Positions 30,551 through 37,510 of a stretch of DNA of 64,000 nucleotides are shown piece after piece. The stretch covers positions 55,196,750-55,260,749 of the forward strand of contig JAKCOZ010000005.1 in NCBI GenBank assembly GCA_022605955.1. The letters are read 5' to 3'. The DNA is from Rallus limicola (Eukaryota > Chordata > Aves > Gruiformes > Rallidae). Under the pieces are notes generated by a model, which was given only the letters and a program-made list of their open reading frames with translations, was not told where the DNA came from and did no database searches. The stretch's first letter is position 1, and every line of letters begins with the position of its first letter. Both the position numbers and the translations under genes were made by a program.

Positions 30551-30555
30551 CAGGC
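30551..30555. repeat. Target-site duplication, left copy (CAGGC)
   Basis: The five bases immediately left of the LTR are identical to those immediately right of the distal LTR (37506-37510). Integrase makes such short direct repeats at insertion. Five bases is within the usual retroviral range of 4-6. Confidence 0.9.
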
Positions 30556-31144
30556 TGTCGTGGTTTCACCCCGGCTTGGGCCGAGATCCACGCAGCTGCC
30601 TGCTCCTTAAAGTAAAAGAGCAGGAGAAAAGGGAAAAAGGGGAGGGGGGAAACAAGGGAAGGGAAAAGGAAGGGGCAAGTAACTCCAAAACCAAGAAACT
30701 AAGAGGCCCGTGGGTTGGGATAAGGATAGTTTACTAAGATAACAGAAAAAATAAAATATATACAATGCTAACAGGACTATAGAGCAAAAGAATATGAAAA
30801 TATTGATACACAATGCAGTTTCTCACCGAACCACACAACTCAGGCCGTACCACCCAGAGCCGTCCCGGAACCCGACCGTCCCCCAAGACCCTCGCGTCCC
30901 GGCCGCTCGCGTCCCGGAACCGCCCCTTCCTCCTCCCATCAGCCCCCCTTTATCCTGGGCAGGACGTAATTGGCATGGAATACTCTCTTTGGCCCATCTG
31001 GGTCACCTGTCCTGGCATTGACTGTCTGACTGCAACTAAAAACATCAGGGTGTTATCAGCACTGTTTTCATTTTAACTCCCAAACACAGCATTCCATCCG
31101 CTGCTACAAATGAAATTAACTCTATCCTGACTGAAACCAGGACA
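30556..31144 (-). repeat. 3' LTR of the endogenous retrovirus
   Basis: In element orientation it begins TGTCCTGGTTTCA and ends CCACGACA (TG...CA ends). It aligns with the other LTR at a constant offset of 6,361 bases, with no difference that I could see. It contains the same CpG-rich block, TATA-like sequence and pyrimidine tract as its partner. Confidence 0.95.
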
Positions 31145-31160
31145 TTATCCACCCCTTATT
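31145..31160 (-). promoter_or_regulatory. Candidate polypurine tract for plus-strand DNA priming
   Basis: Directly upstream of the 3' LTR the element strand reads AATAAGGGGTGGATAA. The AAGGGGTGG core is purine-rich with one T. It is short and imperfect compared with most retroviral tracts, but it is in the required place. Confidence 0.55.
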
Positions 31161-31641
31161 CCATACCATTTACGTCATGACCAGATCCAACCATTTCTTT
31201 TGGGTACAACCAATGTTTCAGACACACATATCTGTATTATTCCCTTAGTCTATGGACCATTCTTCTGAGTTTTGTTGAGTAAATGATTTAGTCCATGACT
31301 TTCAGGCTTCATTCGTTGTAACAGTCTCTCATGGTGTCAGTATGCACCATTGGATCATTGCATGCTGCATCTCGGGCTCTCGACCAATGCATCTGACATG
31401 GTCCATGGTCATGGTCTGTGAATCAAAAGTGTTCATTTTCAAAGGGGAAGAGGAAAAAGTTCTTGTGATGGTAGGTCTTGATCCCATCATCGTGGCAGTC
31501 TTCCTTCATTGACGTGTATGTTTCCGGCTGTAACTCCATTGGCACAACACACAACAACAATTATATATACAGAAATTAAAGTAATAATGTATATACTGTA
31601 ATGGGTTATTTAGCACTTATTATAATACAATTTCTACCTTA
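31161..31641 (-). other. Retroviral 3' non-coding region, no env
   Basis: Roughly 480 bases separate the pol stop from the polypurine tract. This is too short for an envelope gene, and I found no open frame of 60 codons or more on the element strand. It is AT-rich, especially at 31555-31640. Presumably it is a 3' untranslated region that may hold export or packaging signals, but I recognise none. Confidence 0.8.
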
Positions 31642-34600
31642 CTAATTACATTGGCTATTCTCACCTAAAATCAAATCCCTTTGAGGTACACATCGAGTTT
31701 CTCCATCCTTCTGCATTACCCACCAAGTAGAACCAGGTCCTTGAGCAAAAACAATTCCCGACATAGGTTTACCTTTACCTGAAGCAGGGATGACCCAAAC
31801 TGTCTTCCCTAATATACTTTTCATGTGCACCACTGGGACTCTGTCTCCTTCTACAGTACATGGAAATTTTGACTGGGCAGGGCCAGCCCGATTGGTAGAA
31901 CCCCTAGAGTTAACTAACCACGTGGCTTTTGCCAAATTTGTATCCCAATGTTTGAATGTTCCACCACCCATTGCTTTCAGGGTAGTCTTTAAGAGTCCAT
32001 TATATCGTTCAATTTTCCCAGAGGCTGGTGCATGATAAGGAATGTGGTACACCCATTCAATGCCATGCTCTTTGGCCCAGGTGTCTATGAGAGCATTTCG
32101 GAAATGAGTCCCGTTGTCTGACTCGATTCTTTCTGGGGTGCCGTGTCGCCATAGGACTTGCCTTTCAAGGCCCAGGATTGTATTCCGGGCAGTAGCATGG
32201 GGTACCGGATATGTTTCTAGCCAGCCAGTGGTAGCCTCCACCATTGTAAGCACATAGCGTTTGCCATGGCGGGTTTGTGGGAGGGTGATGTAATCAATCT
32301 GCCAGGCCTCCCCATATTTATATTTCATCCACCGTCCCCCATACCAAAGCGGCTTCAACCGCTTCGCCTGCTTAATTGCGGCACACGTCTCACATTCATG
32401 GATAACTTGTGCAATAGCATCCATGGTTAAGTCCACCCCTCGATCTCGAGCCCATCTATATGTTGCATCTCTCCCTTGATGACCTGAGGAATCATGAGCC
32501 CATCGAGCTATGAATAATTCACCTTTATGTTGCCAGTCTAGATCTACCTGAGCCACTTCAATCCTAGCAGCCTTATCTACCTGATGGTTGTTTTGATGTT
32601 CCTCCATGGCTCGACTCTTAGGTACATGGGCATCAACATGACGTACCTTTACAACAAGCCTCTCTAATCGGGTAGCAATGTCTTGCCATAAGTCAGCAGC
32701 CCATATGGGTTTGCCTCTACGCTGCCAGTTGTTCTTTTTCCACTGTTGCAACCAACCCCACAGGGCATTAGCTACCATCCATGAGTCAGTATAAAGATAG
32801 AGCATTGGCCACTTTTCTCTCTCAGCAATGTCCAAGGCCAACTGGATGGCCTTCACCTCAGCAAATTGGCTTGATTCACCTTTTCCTTCAGTGGCTTCTG
32901 CTACTTGTCTGGTAGGACTCCATACAGCAGCTTTCCATCTTCGCTGCCTTCCCACAAGGCGACAGGAGCCATCGGTGAACAGGGCATATCGCTTCTCATT
33001 CTCTGGCAGTTTGTTGTAAGGTGGGGCTTCTTCAGCACGTGTCACCTCCTCGTCCTCTGGTGACATCCCAAAATCTTTGCCTTCTGGCCAGTCTGTGATC
33101 ACTTCCACGATTCCTGGGCGATTAGGGTTTCCTATTCGAGCCCGCTGAGTAATTAGTGCAACCCACTTGCTCCACGTAGCATCAGTGGCATGGTGTGTAG
33201 AAGGGACCTTCCCTTTGAACATCCAGCCCAGCACCGGCAGTCGGGGTGCCAGGAGGAGTTGAGCTTCAGTTCCAATCACTTCTGAAGCGGCTCGAACCCC
33301 TTCATAGGCGGCCAGTATTTCCTTTTCTGTTGGAGTATAATTGGCCTCAGATCCTTTGTAGGCCCGACTCCAAAACCCCAGTGGTCGACCTCTAGTCTCC
33401 CCTTGTGCTTTCTGCCAGAGACTCCAGGTAGGGCCATTCTCCCCGGCTGCAGTGTAAAGCACATTTTTAACATCTGTCCCTGTCCGGACAGGCCCAAGGG
33501 CTACTGCATGGACTATCTCGCGTTTGATCTGTTCAAAGGCTTGCTGCTGCTCAGGGCCCCATTGGAAATCATTCTTCTTCCGAGTTACGTGGTAGAGTGG
33601 GCTCACAATGAGACTGTAGTTTGGGACATGCATTCGCCAAAAACCTATAACACCTAAGAAAGCTTGTGTTTCCTTTTTGTTGCTTGGTGGAGACATAGCT
33701 GCTATTTTATTGATAATGTCCATTGGGATCTGACGACGCCCATCCTGCCATTTTATTCCTAAAAACTGGATTTCTCGGGTAGGCCCCTTGACTTTACTTT
33801 GCTTTATAGCAAAACCAGCTTCCAAAAGGATTTGAATTATCCTTTTTCCTTTCTCAAATACTTCCTCTGCTGTATTGCCCCATACAATGATGTCATCAAT
33901 ATACTGCAGGTGCTCTGGGGCTTTACCCTTTTCCAGTGTGGTCTGAATTAGTCCATGGCAAATGGTGGGGCTGTGTTTCCACCCCTGGGGCAGACGATTC
34001 CACGTGTATTGGATGCCCCTCCAAGTGAAAGCAAATTGTGGCCTGCACTCTGGCGCCAGTGGTATTGAGAAGAAAGCATTTGCAATGTCAATTGTGGCAT
34101 ACCACTTGGCTGCCTTTGACTCCAATTCATACTGCAGTTCCAGCATGTCTGGTACAGCAGCACTCATACCTGGAGTGACTTCGTTTAGGCCACGATAATC
34201 CACTGTCAGCCTCCACTCTCCATCAGACTTCCGCACTGGCCATATGGGACTGTTAAAGGGTGAGCGGGTTCGGCTGATCACCCCTTGACTCTCTAGTTGA
34301 CGAATCAGCTTATGGATGGGGATCAGGGAATCCCTGTTAGTACGGTATTGTCTCCTGTGCACCGTCGTTGTAGCAATTGGCACCTGCTGTTCTTCAACCT
34401 TCAATAACCCCACAACAGAAGGATCATCAGAGAGTCCAGGCAAGGCACGCAATTGCTCAGTGCCTTCTGTCTCCAAAGCAGCTATTCCAAAAGCCCACCG
34501 GTACCCTTTTGGGTCCTTAAAATAACCTCTACGGAGGTAATCTATACCTAAAATGCATGGAGCTTCTGGGCCAGTCACAATTGGGTGTTTCTCCCAGTCC

Positions 34601-34836
34601 TTCCCAGTTAAGCTCACTTCAGCCTCTAACACAGTCAATTGTTGGGATCCACCTGTCACTCCAGAAATGCTGACAGGTTTTGTCCCTACATGATTCGATG
34701 GCATTATCGTACACTGGGCACCAGTATCCACCAGAGCCTTGTACTCTTGTGGGTCTGACATGCCAGGCCATCTGATCCACACAGTCCAATAAACACGGTT
34801 ATCCCTCTCCTCCACCTGGCTGGAGGCAGGGCCCCT
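31642..34836 (-). CDS. pol: ERVL-like Pol (protease, reverse transcriptase, RNase H, integrase), expressed by stop readthrough
   Basis: An open frame of 1,064 codons directly follows the gag UAG in the same frame. No ATG precedes the protease core closely; the first is the Met just before DPQEYKALVDTG. Numbering below starts at the GTG at 34815. The protease has the active site LVDTGA (D30) and ILGIDY (88-93). The reverse transcriptase has D243 in TIDIANAFF, LPQGW (275-279) and YIDD (305-308). RNase H has D615 in FTDGS, E653, D677 and D747. The integrase zinc finger has H774, H779, C808 and C811; its catalytic triad is D841, D900 and E936, the last two separated by exactly 35 residues. No frameshift, internal stop or missing catalytic residue was seen. 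It would copy the RNA genome to DNA and insert it. Expression as a Gag-Pol fusion is inferred from the frame and stop context. Confidence 0.95.
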   Translation of the reverse strand, partial: RGPASSQVEERDNRVYWTVWIRWPGMSDPQEYKALVDTGAQCTIMPSNHVGTKPVSISGVTGGSQQLTVLEAEVSLTGKDWEKHPIVTGPEAPCILGIDYLRRGYFKDPKGYRWAFGIAALETEGTEQLRALPGLSDDPSVVGLLKVEEQQVPIATTTVHRRQYRTNRDSLIPIHKLIRQLESQGVISRTRSPFNSPIWPVRKSDGEWRLTVDYRGLNEVTPGMSAAVPDMLELQYELESKAAKWYATIDIANAFFSIPLAPECRPQFAFTWRGIQYTWNRLPQGWKHSPTICHGLIQTTLEKGKAPEHLQYIDDIIVWGNTAEEVFEKGKRIIQILLEAGFAIKQSKVKGPTREIQFLGIKWQDGRRQIPMDIINKIAAMSPPSNKKETQAFLGVIGFWRMHVPNYSLIVSPLYHVTRKKNDFQWGPEQQQAFEQIKREIVHAVALGPVRTGTDVKNVLYTAAGENGPTWSLWQKAQGETRGRPLGFWSRAYKGSEANYTPTEKEILAAYEGVRAASEVIGTEAQLLLAPRLPVLGWMFKGKVPSTHHATDATWSKWVALITQRARIGNPNRPGIVEVITDWPEGKDFGMSPEDEEVTRAEEAPPYNKLPENEKRYALFTDGSCRLVGRQRRWKAAVWSPTRQVAEATEGKGESSQFAEVKAIQLALDIAEREKWPMLYLYTDSWMVANALWGWLQQWKKNNWQRRGKPIWAADLWQDIATRLERLVVKVRHVDAHVPKSRAMEEHQNNHQVDKAARIEVAQVDLDWQHKGELFIARWAHDSSGHQGRDATYRWARDRGVDLTMDAIAQVIHECETCAAIKQAKRLKPLWYGGRWMKYKYGEAWQIDYITLPQTRHGKRYVLTMVEATTGWLETYPVPHATARNTILGLERQVLWRHGTPERIESDNGTHFRNALIDTWAKEHGIEWVYHIPYHAPASGKIERYNGLLKTTLKAMGGGTFKHWDTNLAKATWLVNSRGSTNRAGPAQSKFPCTVEGDRVPVVHMKSILGKTVWVIPASGKGKPMSGIVFAQGPGSTWWVMQKDGETRCVPQRDLILGENSQCN

Positions 34837-34839
34837 CTA
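34803..34839 (-). promoter_or_regulatory. Candidate gag-pol readthrough signal: UAG plus hairpin
   Basis: The gag stop UAG (34839-34837) is followed by a five-base purine spacer AGGGG. A potential hairpin then forms: CCCT and CCTCCA (34831-34821, one bulged G) pair with TGGAGG and AGGG (34814-34803) around the loop GCCAGG, giving 10 base pairs. A stop, short purine spacer and structure in one frame is the known layout of gammaretroviral gag-pol readthrough. Function here is inference. Confidence 0.6.
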
Positions 34840-36795
34840 TTGTTGCTGATCGTATTGGCTGCTCACTGGTGCAGCCTTCTTCCTGACAACATCGCGTTGT
34901 GCGATTCTTTTACCTCGAAGCTCATCTACTCGTGCCTGGAGGGCTGAGGTGGGCTGCATATGCCACTTCCTCATGTCCTCACCATGGTCACGCAGGTAAG
35001 ACCACAGCTGCCCTCGCACCGTGTCTCGTGGTGTGTACCTTCTGTATCCTCCCTTCTGGGATGATGGACGCTTTCTCCTAGTAGCTGCAACATTGCCCCA
35101 ATGTTGGTCAAATCGTTTGACCAGTTTCTCTACCGCTGCGATCATAGAGTGGGAAACATTGTCCTCATATTTCCGGAGTCGCCAGGACACTTGTTCTACA
35201 GTTGGTGGATATGCATCCTCCCAGTCTATTGATGCTAGTGAATTGGTGTGCCCTGCTGGTGCACTTCGTACAACCTTACGCCACATATCTGGGGTGCATA
35301 TAACTTCATCAGGATCAGAGGGATTCTGTGTATTGTCCAGATCATAATAAATGATCTCCCGTACAGCTAATTCTCTCAGGTACTGGATAACTGCCTCTAT
35401 GCTATTACACTTGGGTGAGTGACATGTAATATATTCCTTTATGGGATACCTTTCCTCCACACTTGACAGTAGTCGCCTCCAGAGGCTGAGGATTTCTGGC
35501 TTTTTCCCAATTTCCTTGTCAATGCCTCCTTCTCTAGCTAGGGATCCCAACTGCTTGGCCTCCCTGCCATCTAATTCCAGACTACTGGCCCCTAGATCCC
35601 AGCATCGGAGCAACCAGGTGATGATGTGCTCACCTGGGCGGCGGCTGAAATCTTTTCGAACCTCACGCAGCTCACTCAGGGTCAGGGATCGTGTGACAAT
35701 CTCTGGCCCTGCTCCATCCTGAGATGCCTGAGATGGCCCTGCTCCATCCTGACATGCTCCAGATGGCCCTGCTTCATCATCATCATCCTTCACTACACGA
35801 ACTGATTTCTTTGTGTGTTTCCTCTTTTGTACGGGAGCAACAGACACTGGCGGGGGTTGGTTTTTTGTTTTATCAGCAGTATCTGCTGTAGGGGTGGCAG
35901 TAGCTGCAGCATTGGTTGGACTAGTGGCAGTAGCCACAGTGCTAGTCACAGAAGTTACAGTGGCTGCAGTGCCAGTCATAGGGGTTGCAGCAGCTGCAGC
36001 ATTGGTTGGACTAGTTGCAGTAGCCACAGTACTAGTCACAGAAGTTACAGTAGCTGCAGTGCCAGTCATAGGGGTTGCAGCAGCTGCAGTCTTTGCTGGT
36101 TTGTTTTCATTCCTTTCCCTCTGACAGTGCTGACAGTACTGCCTGTTATCAAGCAGTGTTTTGTAAATAGTGGCCAGGGCCCAGCACAGTGCAGTAAGGT
36201 GTGCTTCTCTGGTAAACTTACAGCAATTCCTTTTCAGATATGCAGTAACTTTACCAGGGTCCTGTAACTGCTCAGGAGTGAAACTCCAAGCCATTGGAAG
36301 TGAGAAAGTACCTAGGTACCTGCCCATGCTCTGCCACATGCCCTGCCACTCATGTTTATCTGGCCTCGCAGAAAACTCTGGAGTGGTATTCATAAACCTC
36401 TGCTTAATATTTGACAACAACTGAACCATCTGCACCAAAGCTAAAAACAACAAAATGCTAGTTTGAATATCCCAGGGATATTGGAAGTTTTTAAAAACTG
36501 CTAGCAGAGTTGTTGTATCTAGCCCAAAGGAAAAGAAAGCAGTACTCCCACCATACCAGCTGCCGTTTTTAAACCCTCCCTGTCCAAAGAATGGACAGGG
36601 CAGCAAGATCTCATATAAGTACCAGAAAAAGTTCACGATCCTCGATATTACTGAATCATAGACTGTTATCATAATAAACAAGAACAGGAGACGCAGCTTC
36701 GACATGGTAGAAAATCCTATCAGGACTGCATACAGCATACGGTAGTTTTGCTGCCACAGCAGTGACCACAGCCATGTGAATAAATACCACAGCAT
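34837..36795 (-). CDS. gag: ERVL-like Gag structural polyprotein
   Basis: Translation from the first ATG (36795, A at -3) gives 652 residues ending at UAG; an in-frame TAA lies about 10 codons upstream. The N-terminus is strikingly hydrophobic (about residues 1-67, with stretches such as LRLLFLFIMITVY and IVNFFWYLYEILL), and a further segment SILLFLALVQMV lies near 113-124. A low-complexity Thr/Ala/Val section (about 236-306) is built from 30-residue tandem repeats. Then come a Lys-rich patch, an acidic DDDDEAGPS patch and two short CQDGAGPS-like repeats. The capsid-like part (about 364-567) includes WLLRCWDLGA, typical of ERVL Gag and of genes derived from it such as Fv1. The C-terminus is basic (RRKRPSSQKGGYRR). 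No CX2CX4HX4C zinc knuckle is present, as in spuma-like viruses. It would form the particle core. Confidence 0.9.
   Translation of the reverse strand: MLWYLFTWLWSLLWQQNYRMLYAVLIGFSTMSKLRLLFLFIMITVYDSVISRIVNFFWYLYEILLPCPFFGQGGFKNGSWYGGSTAFFSFGLDTTTLLAVFKNFQYPWDIQTSILLFLALVQMVQLLSNIKQRFMNTTPEFSARPDKHEWQGMWQSMGRYLGTFSLPMAWSFTPEQLQDPGKVTAYLKRNCCKFTREAHLTALCWALATIYKTLLDNRQYCQHCQRERNENKPAKTAAAATPMTGTAATVTSVTSTVATATSPTNAAAAATPMTGTAATVTSVTSTVATATSPTNAAATATPTADTADKTKNQPPPVSVAPVQKRKHTKKSVRVVKDDDDEAGPSGACQDGAGPSQASQDGAGPEIVTRSLTLSELREVRKDFSRRPGEHIITWLLRCWDLGASSLELDGREAKQLGSLAREGGIDKEIGKKPEILSLWRRLLSSVEERYPIKEYITCHSPKCNSIEAVIQYLRELAVREIIYYDLDNTQNPSDPDEVICTPDMWRKVVRSAPAGHTNSLASIDWEDAYPPTVEQVSWRLRKYEDNVSHSMIAAVEKLVKRFDQHWGNVAATRRKRPSSQKGGYRRYTPRDTVRGQLWSYLRDHGEDMRKWHMQPTSALQARVDELRGKRIAQRDVVRKKAAPVSSQYDQQQ
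35718..35775 (-). repeat. Short 30-bp-period repeat inside gag
   Basis: The plus strand shows 'atggccctgctccatcctga' twice and a partial third copy, encoding repeated QDGAGPS-type peptides just after the acidic patch. The frame is kept. Confidence 0.75.
35911..36090 (-). repeat. 90-bp tandem repeat inside gag (two full units)
   Basis: Units 35911-36000 and 36001-36090 differ at only about four bases. Ninety is a multiple of three, so each unit adds exactly 30 residues (Thr/Ala/Val/Ser-rich) and keeps the frame open. A partial, more diverged unit is suggested on either side. Confidence 0.92.
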
Positions 36796-36891
36796 CGTGA
36801 TCGGAGACTGCTTAAACAACAGTTCTTATCACAACTTTGTCTTAATTGCAATCGCGTCAGGGTCAGATCTACCGTTATCCCAACCTTTCGG
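36796..36891 (-). other. Retroviral 5' leader
   Basis: About 96 bases lie between the primer binding site and the gag ATG. This is short for a retroviral leader. It contains an in-frame TAA shortly upstream of gag and a TTG/CTG that could be read as alternative starts, but the ATG at 36795 is favoured by its context. Confidence 0.7.
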
Positions 36892-36909
36892 GCCCCACGT
36901 TGGGCGCCA
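36892..36909 (-). promoter_or_regulatory. Primer binding site, tRNA-Lys(1,2) type
   Basis: The element strand reads TGGCGCCCAACGTGGGGC, the complement of the 3' end of tRNA-Lys1,2. This primer is used by foamy viruses and Mason-Pfizer monkey virus. It starts 7 bases after the LTR end, a wider gap than the usual 0-3. Confidence 0.9.
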
Positions 36910-36916
36910 AAAAGAC

Positions 36917-37505
36917 TGTCGTGGTTTCACCCCGGCTTGGGCCGAGATCCACGCAGCTGCCTGCTCCTTAAAGTAAAAGAGCAGGAGAAAAGGGAAAAAG
37001 GGGAGGGGGGAAACAAGGGAAGGGAAAAGGAAGGGGCAAGTAACTCCAAAACCAAGAAACTAAGAGGCCCGTGGGTTGGGATAAGGATAGTTTACTAAGA
37101 TAACAGAAAAAATAAAATATATACAATGCTAACAGGACTATAGAGCAAAAGAATATGAAAATATTGATACACAATGCAGTTTCTCACCGAACCACACAAC
37201 TCAGGCCGTACCACCCAGAGCCGTCCCGGAACCCGACCGTCCCCCAAGACCCTCGCGTCCCGGCCGCTCGCGTCCCGGAACCGCCCCTTCCTCCTCCCAT
37301 CAGCCCCCCTTTATCCTGGGCAGGACGTAATTGGCATGGAATACTCTCTTTGGCCCATCTGGGTCACCTGTCCTGGCATTGACTGTCTGACTGCAACTAA
37401 AAACATCAGGGTGTTATCAGCACTGTTTTCATTTTAACTCCCAAACACAGCATTCCATCCGCTGCTACAAATGAAATTAACTCTATCCTGACTGAAACCA
37501 GGACA
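36917..37505 (-). repeat. 5' LTR of the endogenous retrovirus
   Basis: This is the promoter-bearing copy, 589 bp with TG...CA ends. In element orientation a CpG-rich section (about 37280-37200), including two copies of CCGGGACGCGAG 15 bp apart (37278-37252), precedes the TATA-like TATATATTTTATT. A long pyrimidine tract follows near the U5 end. I found no AATAAA; AGTAAA at 37096-37091 is the nearest polyadenylation-like hexamer. Confidence 0.95.
37111..37124 (-). promoter_or_regulatory. Candidate TATA box of the 5' LTR
   Basis: The element strand reads TATATATTTTATT, just downstream of the CpG-rich block. The identical sequence lies at 30750-30763 in the 3' LTR. The start site cannot be placed from sequence alone. 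Confidence 0.5.
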
Positions 37506-37510
37506 CAGGC
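37506..37510. repeat. Target-site duplication, right copy (CAGGC)
   Basis: Matches 30551-30555 exactly. Removing the element and one copy gives an uninterrupted empty site reading '...cttccaggccaaggcc'. Confidence 0.9.

What the first reader, a model, noticed from the sequence alone, without database searches (positions are those of the whole stretch)
30556..37505. Very young, apparently coding-competent endogenous retrovirus
The two 589-bp LTRs align at a constant 6,361-base offset with no visible difference. The target duplication CAGGC is perfect, and gag and pol have no internal stop or frameshift. LTRs are identical at insertion and diverge with age, so this copy is recent, possibly polymorphic in the species, and could still make proteins and particles. 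Open, full-length ERVL-type copies are uncommon among old genomic insertions.
Basis: partly seen in the sequence, partly recalled or inferred. Interest (0 to 1): 0.9.

Follow-up and report, generated by a model that had tools for sequence, protein, structure and literature searches.

The report
Freshly amplified, intact bird ERVL-like provirus
The window holds a complete, undamaged viral-like jumping element that inserted so recently that its two ends are still identical, and it is one of hundreds of near-identical copies in this probably avian genome, which points to a very recent and perhaps ongoing burst of a known kind of element.

Summary
Confirmed and enlarged. The two 589-bp LTRs are identical with a perfect CAGGC duplication. 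The provirus is on the minus strand: 5' LTR, tRNA-Lys primer site, gag ending in UAG, pol in the same frame; no env, no dUTPase hit. An exact 44-base primer-site/leader occurs 500 times in the assembly, an exact gag-pol junction 814 times. Of 41 LTR pairs scored, window included, 35 are identical and 6 differ (6 substitutions in all). Among 10 copies chosen only by the leader, 7 scorable pairs hold 5 substitutions in 4,113 bp, about 0.3 My at the zebra finch rate. Pol pN/pS among 30 copies is 0.23, and leader-to-junction length differs from the window's by a multiple of three, or not at all, in 40 of 42 copies, so spreading lineages needed working proteins. RT and integrase are class III, near ERV-L and foamy viruses, but the primer is Lys, not Leu, and dUTPase is missing: "ERVL-like" is safer than ERV-L. 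A recently active songbird ERVL2 with two same-frame ORFs is in print (PMC6523648). Polymorphism, expression and host species are untested.

The parts
30551..30555 (.). target-site duplication CAGGC, left copy
30556..31144 (-). 3' LTR (589 bp)
   Evidence: identical to 36917-37505
31149..31160 (-). purine-rich tract AATAAGGGGTGG just before the 3' LTR, probable polypurine tract
   Evidence: read; role inferred
31642..34836 (-). pol ORF, 1,064 codons plus stop: protease, RT, RNase H, integrase
32032..32313 (-). integrase core (rve); zinc motif HX4HX28CX2C and catalytic DX58DX35E intact in pol
32563..32994 (-). RNase H domain
33751..34236 (-). reverse transcriptase domain (RVT_1); DYRGLN, LPQG, YIDD present
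34531..34746 (-). aspartic protease (RVP), DTG motif
34837..34839 (-). UAG between gag and pol, same frame; TAG in the first 100 listed of 814 junction copies and in 30 of 30 gag loci
   Evidence: read-through is inferred
34837..36795 (-). gag from its first ATG (652 codons plus stop)
   Evidence: start codon choice inferred
35104..35448 (-). Gag region (residues 460-574 of the stop-to-stop frame) whose model aligns with capsid C-terminal domains (PEG10, Arc, MLV, HERV-K)
35889..36089 (-). 90-bp tandem repeat (2.2 copies) in the Thr/Ala-rich Gag linker
36406..36795 (-). hydrophobic N-terminal Gag region with two membrane-segment-like stretches
   Evidence: alignment; membrane role inferred
36892..36909 (-). 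primer-binding site, 18/18 complementary to the 3' end of tRNA-Lys(CTT) plus CCA
36917..37505 (-). 5' LTR (589 bp)
37506..37510 (.). target-site duplication CAGGC, right copy

Best explanation
It is one copy of an env-less class III (ERVL-like) avian endogenous retrovirus that has been amplifying by retrotransposition within roughly the last million years and may still be doing so. Shown: complete structure, identical LTRs, open gag and pol, hundreds of near-identical copies, own target duplications in nearly every copy whose flanks were read, constraint on gag and pol during spread. Inferred mechanism: a full-length RNA is made in germ cells; ribosomes make Gag and occasionally read through the UAG to make Gag-Pol; tRNA-Lys primes reverse transcription inside intracellular particles; the integrase inserts the DNA with a 5-bp duplication; without env the cycle stays inside the cell. 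The hydrophobic N-terminus of Gag may hold particles at an internal membrane.
For: LTRs 0/589. LTR pairs elsewhere: 13 of 13 LTR-chosen pairs have 0 differences and a matching 5-bp duplication in the printed flanks; of 20 Gag-chosen pairs, 18 have a matching 5-bp duplication with 0 substitutions and 2 indel events in 10,575 bp, and the other two have 1 and 0 substitutions; of 10 leader-chosen copies 7 could be scored, with 5 substitutions and 1 indel in 4,113 bp. LTR lengths differ between copies (576 to 593) but agree within a copy in all but 3 of the 27 pairs, as reverse transcription predicts. Copy number: 500 exact leaders and 814 exact junctions, reversed controls 0. Gag: all 67 scored (of 3,363 candidates) open over 662 codons. 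Pol: all 67 scored (of 3,924 candidates) 100% identical over 665 aa in a 1,064-codon frame. Constraint: pN/pS 0.23 over 499 pol codons in 30 copies, 0 of 30 with a stop; 9 nonsynonymous to 16 synonymous distinct variants, binomial p 1.1e-5; leader-to-junction length equal to the window's or differing by a multiple of 3 in 40 of 42 copies, and 11 of 13 differing length classes. Class: best PDB matches of the RT piece are entries named Pr125Pol and Peptidase A9/RT/RNase H (126 and 125.5 bits; that these are foamy viruses is recalled), against 105 for the best p80 RT/RNase H entry and 66.6 for the best named HIV entry; best integrase is PFV integrase, 57.8 bits; YIDD, HX4HX28CX2C and DX58DX35E equal the ERV-L column of PMC8278194 Table 2.
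Against: No expression, particle or new-insertion data. The gag and pol lists are best-scoring candidates, so their intactness is biased upward, and the 30 copies of the pN/pS count were chosen by Gag likeness. 3 of 10 leader-chosen copies had no 3' LTR at the expected distance, so the 500 leaders are not all full-length proviruses. Three leader-chosen pairs carry 1, 1 and 3 substitutions, about 0.4 to 1.3 My. Two of 42 lengths are out of frame, and part of the in-frame length change is repeat units. The RNA after the UAG folds no better than shuffles (z 0.11). The hydrophobic segments score only modestly (1.77 and 1.78) and the full Gag model is poor (pLDDT 59.9).
Confidence: 0.85

Rival explanations
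1. The LTR identity is an assembly artefact or gene conversion, and the element is older.
For: LTR identity alone cannot tell recent insertion from conversion; 35 of 41 pairs being fully identical is extreme. Raw reads were not available.
Against: Nearly every copy whose flanks were read has its own 5-bp duplication, LTR length classes differ between copies but mostly agree within a copy, and a pol stretch outside the LTRs also differs from the window copy by only 1 to 7 of 1,497 bases in 29 other copies.
Confidence: 0.04
2. The copies arose by segmental or tandem duplication of one old provirus rather than by retrotransposition.
For: Two C113 copies share the duplication GTCAT and three places look like tandem proviruses by spacing.
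Against: 13 LTR-chosen pairs show 12 different 5-letter duplications (GAGGT twice, on different contigs) and 18 Gag-chosen pairs show 17, the C113 pair being the only repeat, as separate integrations do.
Confidence: 0.04
3. Many copies are passive passengers, mobilised in trans by a few active masters, and the window copy itself is inactive.
For: At least one copy with identical LTRs has a large internal deletion (LTRs 2,873 bp apart on C4), so mobilisation in trans or quick deletion occurs; one change outside the frames could silence this copy.
Against: Constraint on gag and pol across copies suggests that the sampled lineages passed through working proteins.
Confidence: 0.3
4. It still spreads between cells with an env supplied from elsewhere.
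For: Not excluded by sequence; the copy number is high.
Against: About 500 bases lie between pol and the 3' LTR and no minus-strand ORF of 80 codons or more is there. No env search of the genome was made.
Confidence: 0.05

Closest known systems
TguERVL2_I_Ucy and relatives in songbirds (PMC6523648, section 3.4 read whole, other passages)
   Same: About 6.4 kb, two long ORFs in one reading frame, protease, RT, RNase H and integrase, recently active, 5-bp duplication class (ERV3)
   Different: There most copies are solo LTRs and mean divergence to consensus is 1.7%; here 9 of the 40 best LTR hits are solo and LTR pair divergence is near zero.
MuERV-L/MERVL of mouse (PMC3915180, passages; ERV-L column of Table 2 in PMC8278194)
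   Same: Env-less class III of about 6.5 kb with hundreds of full-length copies (over 650 in one passage, 500-600 in another); YIDD, HX4HX28CX2C, DX58DX35E, no Cys-His box
   Different: Leucine primer site and a dUTPase, neither found here
XtERV-S of Xenopus (PMC8278194, section 5 and passages)
   Same: Class III Pol with DYRGLN and YIDD, in-frame stop between gag and pol (TGA there, TAG here), identical LTRs
   Different: Has env and dUTPase, serine primer site
Foamy viruses
   Same: Nearest solved RT and integrase; the Lys primer type is foamy-like (recalled)
   Different: Here no env; YIDD not YVDD; integrase HX4HX28 not HX3HX29; pol in the gag frame (Table 2 and passages of PMC8278194)

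Membership tests
ERV-L (class III, mammalian sense) | leucine tRNA primer site | tested here: not met
   PBS is 18/18 to tRNA-Lys(CTT) of the same genome
ERV-L (class III, mammalian sense) | dUTPase in pol | tested here: not met
   no dUTPase among Pfam hits to E 0.1 on pol
ERV-L (class III, mammalian sense) | no env | tested here: met
   about 500 bases after pol without a minus-strand ORF of 80 codons
ERV-L (class III, mammalian sense) | YIDD, HX4HX28CX2C, DX58DX35E, no Cys-His box | tested here: met
   against Table 2 of PMC8278194; DX58DX35E is shared with foamy virus
ERV-L (class III, mammalian sense) | GQR motif and MHR in Gag | tested here: inconclusive
   no GX0-3QR; only a loosened MHR pattern matches at Gag 477-489, the strict one does not
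Avian ERV3/ERVL superfamily as used for birds | TG...CA LTR ends and 5-bp target duplication | tested here: met
   window; 13 of 13 LTR-chosen pairs; 18 of 20 Gag-chosen pairs; 6 of 7 scored leader-chosen pairs; two of the rest show 4 matching bases; definition in PMC6523648
[quoted passage not shown]
TguERVL2 family | nucleotide similarity to the TguERVL2 consensus | not testable with these tools
   no repeat library is on hand
Retroviral Gag | capsid C-terminal fold | tested here: inconclusive
Spumavirus | pol in a frame other than gag; YVDD; env present | tested here: not met
   same frame, YIDD, no env; features from PMC8278194

The most novel reading that the evidence does not exclude
An avian class III lineage has changed its primer to tRNA-Lys, dropped dUTPase, and uses a Gag with a hydrophobic, membrane-directed N-terminus plus UAG read-through for a fully intracellular life cycle, and it is retrotransposing in the germ line of this species now, with many insertions still segregating between individuals.
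Probability: 0.45. Interest if true: 0.6.

Novelty: new member of a known kind. Interest (0 to 1): 0.45.

Why it matters
Hundreds of near-identical copies, many of them frame-intact, make this species a possible natural system for watching an endogenous retrovirus spread and for asking how its host silences it. They also give a clean set of recent insertions for testing read-through and primer use in env-less class III elements.

Tried and rejected
Flank search for an empty allele: asked 18 times, each time answered busy, so polymorphism is untested. LTR-end pattern counts for a solo-LTR ratio: busy. Special RNA structure after the UAG: unsupported (z 0.11). Full Gag model against PDB: no match with E under 0.001; capsid piece by Foldseek none under 0.001; the second look by VIA-align gave the CA-type rows. 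Gag against Pfam: three weak hits below their cut-offs. Gag against PDB sequences: three weak hits to unrelated proteins, best E 0.035. Ten long ORFs elsewhere in the window: 0 of 10 with a Pfam hit at E 0.01. Rfam on the window: 0 hits at gathering score. tRNA genes in the window: 0. My guess that the host is a New World sparrow: no evidence found; dropped. Gag searched by alignment for non-bird relatives: 306 hits, 120 listed; the named ones listed are birds apart from one contig labelled Klebsiella. Print searches. Passages of PMC10542752 and PMC11009239 concern ERVK in passerines and hold no mention of ERVL.
Full report
Check of the observation. The two LTRs are 589 of 589 identical at offset 6,361 and flanked by CAGGC on both sides. 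The element lies on the minus strand. Its gag frame (34837-36825, 662 codons stop to stop; first ATG at 36795) ends in TAG at 34837-34839 and pol (31642-34836, 1,064 codons) follows in the same frame. Protease, RT, RNase H and integrase domains are found by Pfam and the motifs DTG, DYRGLN, LPQG, YIDD, HX4HX28CX2C and DX58DX35E are present. About 500 bases separate pol from the 3' LTR, without an env-sized ORF.

Family in the genome. The window lies in an assembly of 1,395,466,701 bases in 1,102 contigs. The 40 LTR hits scored, of 1,136 candidates, are 99 to 100% identical; by spacing and flanks they are 28 LTRs of 14 proviruses (window included), 9 solo LTRs and 3 single LTRs of proviruses. 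An exact 44-base primer-site/leader occurs 500 times and an exact junction with open stop codon 814 times, with zero matches to the reversed controls; the first 100 listed of the 814 carry TAG. All 67 scored Gag matches (of 3,363 candidates) are open over 662 codons, and all 67 scored RNase H-integrase matches (of 3,924) are 100% identical within a 1,064-codon frame. These lists are top-scoring, not random, and the leader and junction counts include damaged copies.

Age. 13 of 13 LTR-chosen pairs have no difference. Of 20 Gag-chosen pairs, 18 had matching 5-bp duplications, with 0 substitutions and 2 indel events in 10,575 bp; the other two had 1 and 0 substitutions, one running straight into another primer site (tandem), one with only 4 matching flank bases; two of the 18 share one duplication, so they count as one insertion. 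Of 10 leader-chosen copies, 7 were scorable with 0, 3, 1, 0, 1, 0 and 0 substitutions and one indel, and 3 lacked a 3' LTR at the expected distance. In all 41 pairs, window included: 35 identical, 6 not, 6 substitutions. At 2.0e-9 per site per year (zebra finch, PMC12047795, abstract and passages; that this rate fits this host is assumed) the leader-chosen mean is 0.30 My and the window copy is under 1.27 My at 95%.

Selection. On contig C1, 42 of 43 leader copies have a junction downstream within 3 kb; the leader-to-junction distance falls in 14 classes including the window's (10 copies), and 40 of 42 copies equal the window or differ by a multiple of three (30 of the 32 that differ, p 1e-12; 11 of 13 differing classes, p 2e-4; the copies are related, so the class count is the safer one). 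Part of this may follow from the 90-base repeat in gag. In the first 499 pol codons of 30 Gag-chosen copies none has a stop and pN/pS is 0.23. Those copies were chosen by Gag, not by pol, but they remain a favourable sample.

Class. The best PDB matches of the RT piece are entries named Pr125Pol and Peptidase A9/RT/RNase H (126 and 125.5 bits; recalled as foamy virus), ahead of the p80 RT/RNase H entries (105 and less) and the best named HIV entry (66.6); the best integrase match is PFV integrase. Motif spacings equal the ERV-L column in PMC8278194 Table 2 (section 5 read). The primer site is 18/18 to a tRNA-Lys(CTT) gene found in the same genome, not Leu, and no dUTPase is found. Of 168 Gag relatives at E under 0.001, 120 are listed; wherever an organism is named it is a bird, apart from one contig labelled Klebsiella. 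The best-scoring relative is 51% identical over 98% of the query, no near-identical protein is listed, and the host species stays unknown.

Comparison with print. PMC6523648 (section 3.4 read) describes a recently active songbird ERVL2 with two same-frame ORFs. PMC3915180 (passages) gives over 650, or 500-600, full-length MuERV-L copies in mouse. PMC8310711 (passages) lists 298 or 552 full-length ERVs of all families on zebra finch autosomes, by two programs, so bird genomes with hundreds of full-length ERVs are known. The kind is known; the near-zero LTR divergence over one large family, the Lys primer and the lack of dUTPase are what stand out. I did not find this element named in the searches listed under Tried and rejected.

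Noticed in passing
proteins P0014 (Buteo buteo) and P0024 (Accipiter gentilis): Annotated USP4 isoforms join the N-terminal USP4 domains to a relative of this Gag, entering at Gag residue 141 just after the hydrophobic region; the same join is in both hawks. Either a shared USP4-Gag transcript or an annotation artefact; many crane Gag relatives are also named USP4.
   Followed up: partly
window 36910-36916; L021; L063: Seven bases (GTCTTTT; the T run varies between copies) lie between the 5' LTR and the primer site, more than the 2 usual for retroviruses (recalled); the integrase would have to trim more at the U5 end.
   Followed up: no
G000:C10:29339447/29345807; G000:C1:41714043/41720233; L064 with L093: Places that look like tandem proviruses, one element length apart or with an LTR followed by a second primer site.
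   Followed up: partly
L054 and L055 (C113): Two copies share the same target duplication and lie 11.8 kb apart, perhaps a local duplication including flanks.
   Followed up: no
G000:C1:38656086(-) and 38659213(+): Two gag-pol junctions 3.1 kb apart in opposite orientation, perhaps one copy inserted beside or in another.
   Followed up: no
window 35889-36089: Thr/Ala-rich 90-base repeat in gag; such composition may explain the herpesvirus glycoprotein C match reported inside the gag of TguERVL2_I_Ucy. Not tested.
   Followed up: no
proteins P0075 and P0129: Contigs labelled Klebsiella pneumoniae carry Gag relatives, probably bird contamination.
   Followed up: no
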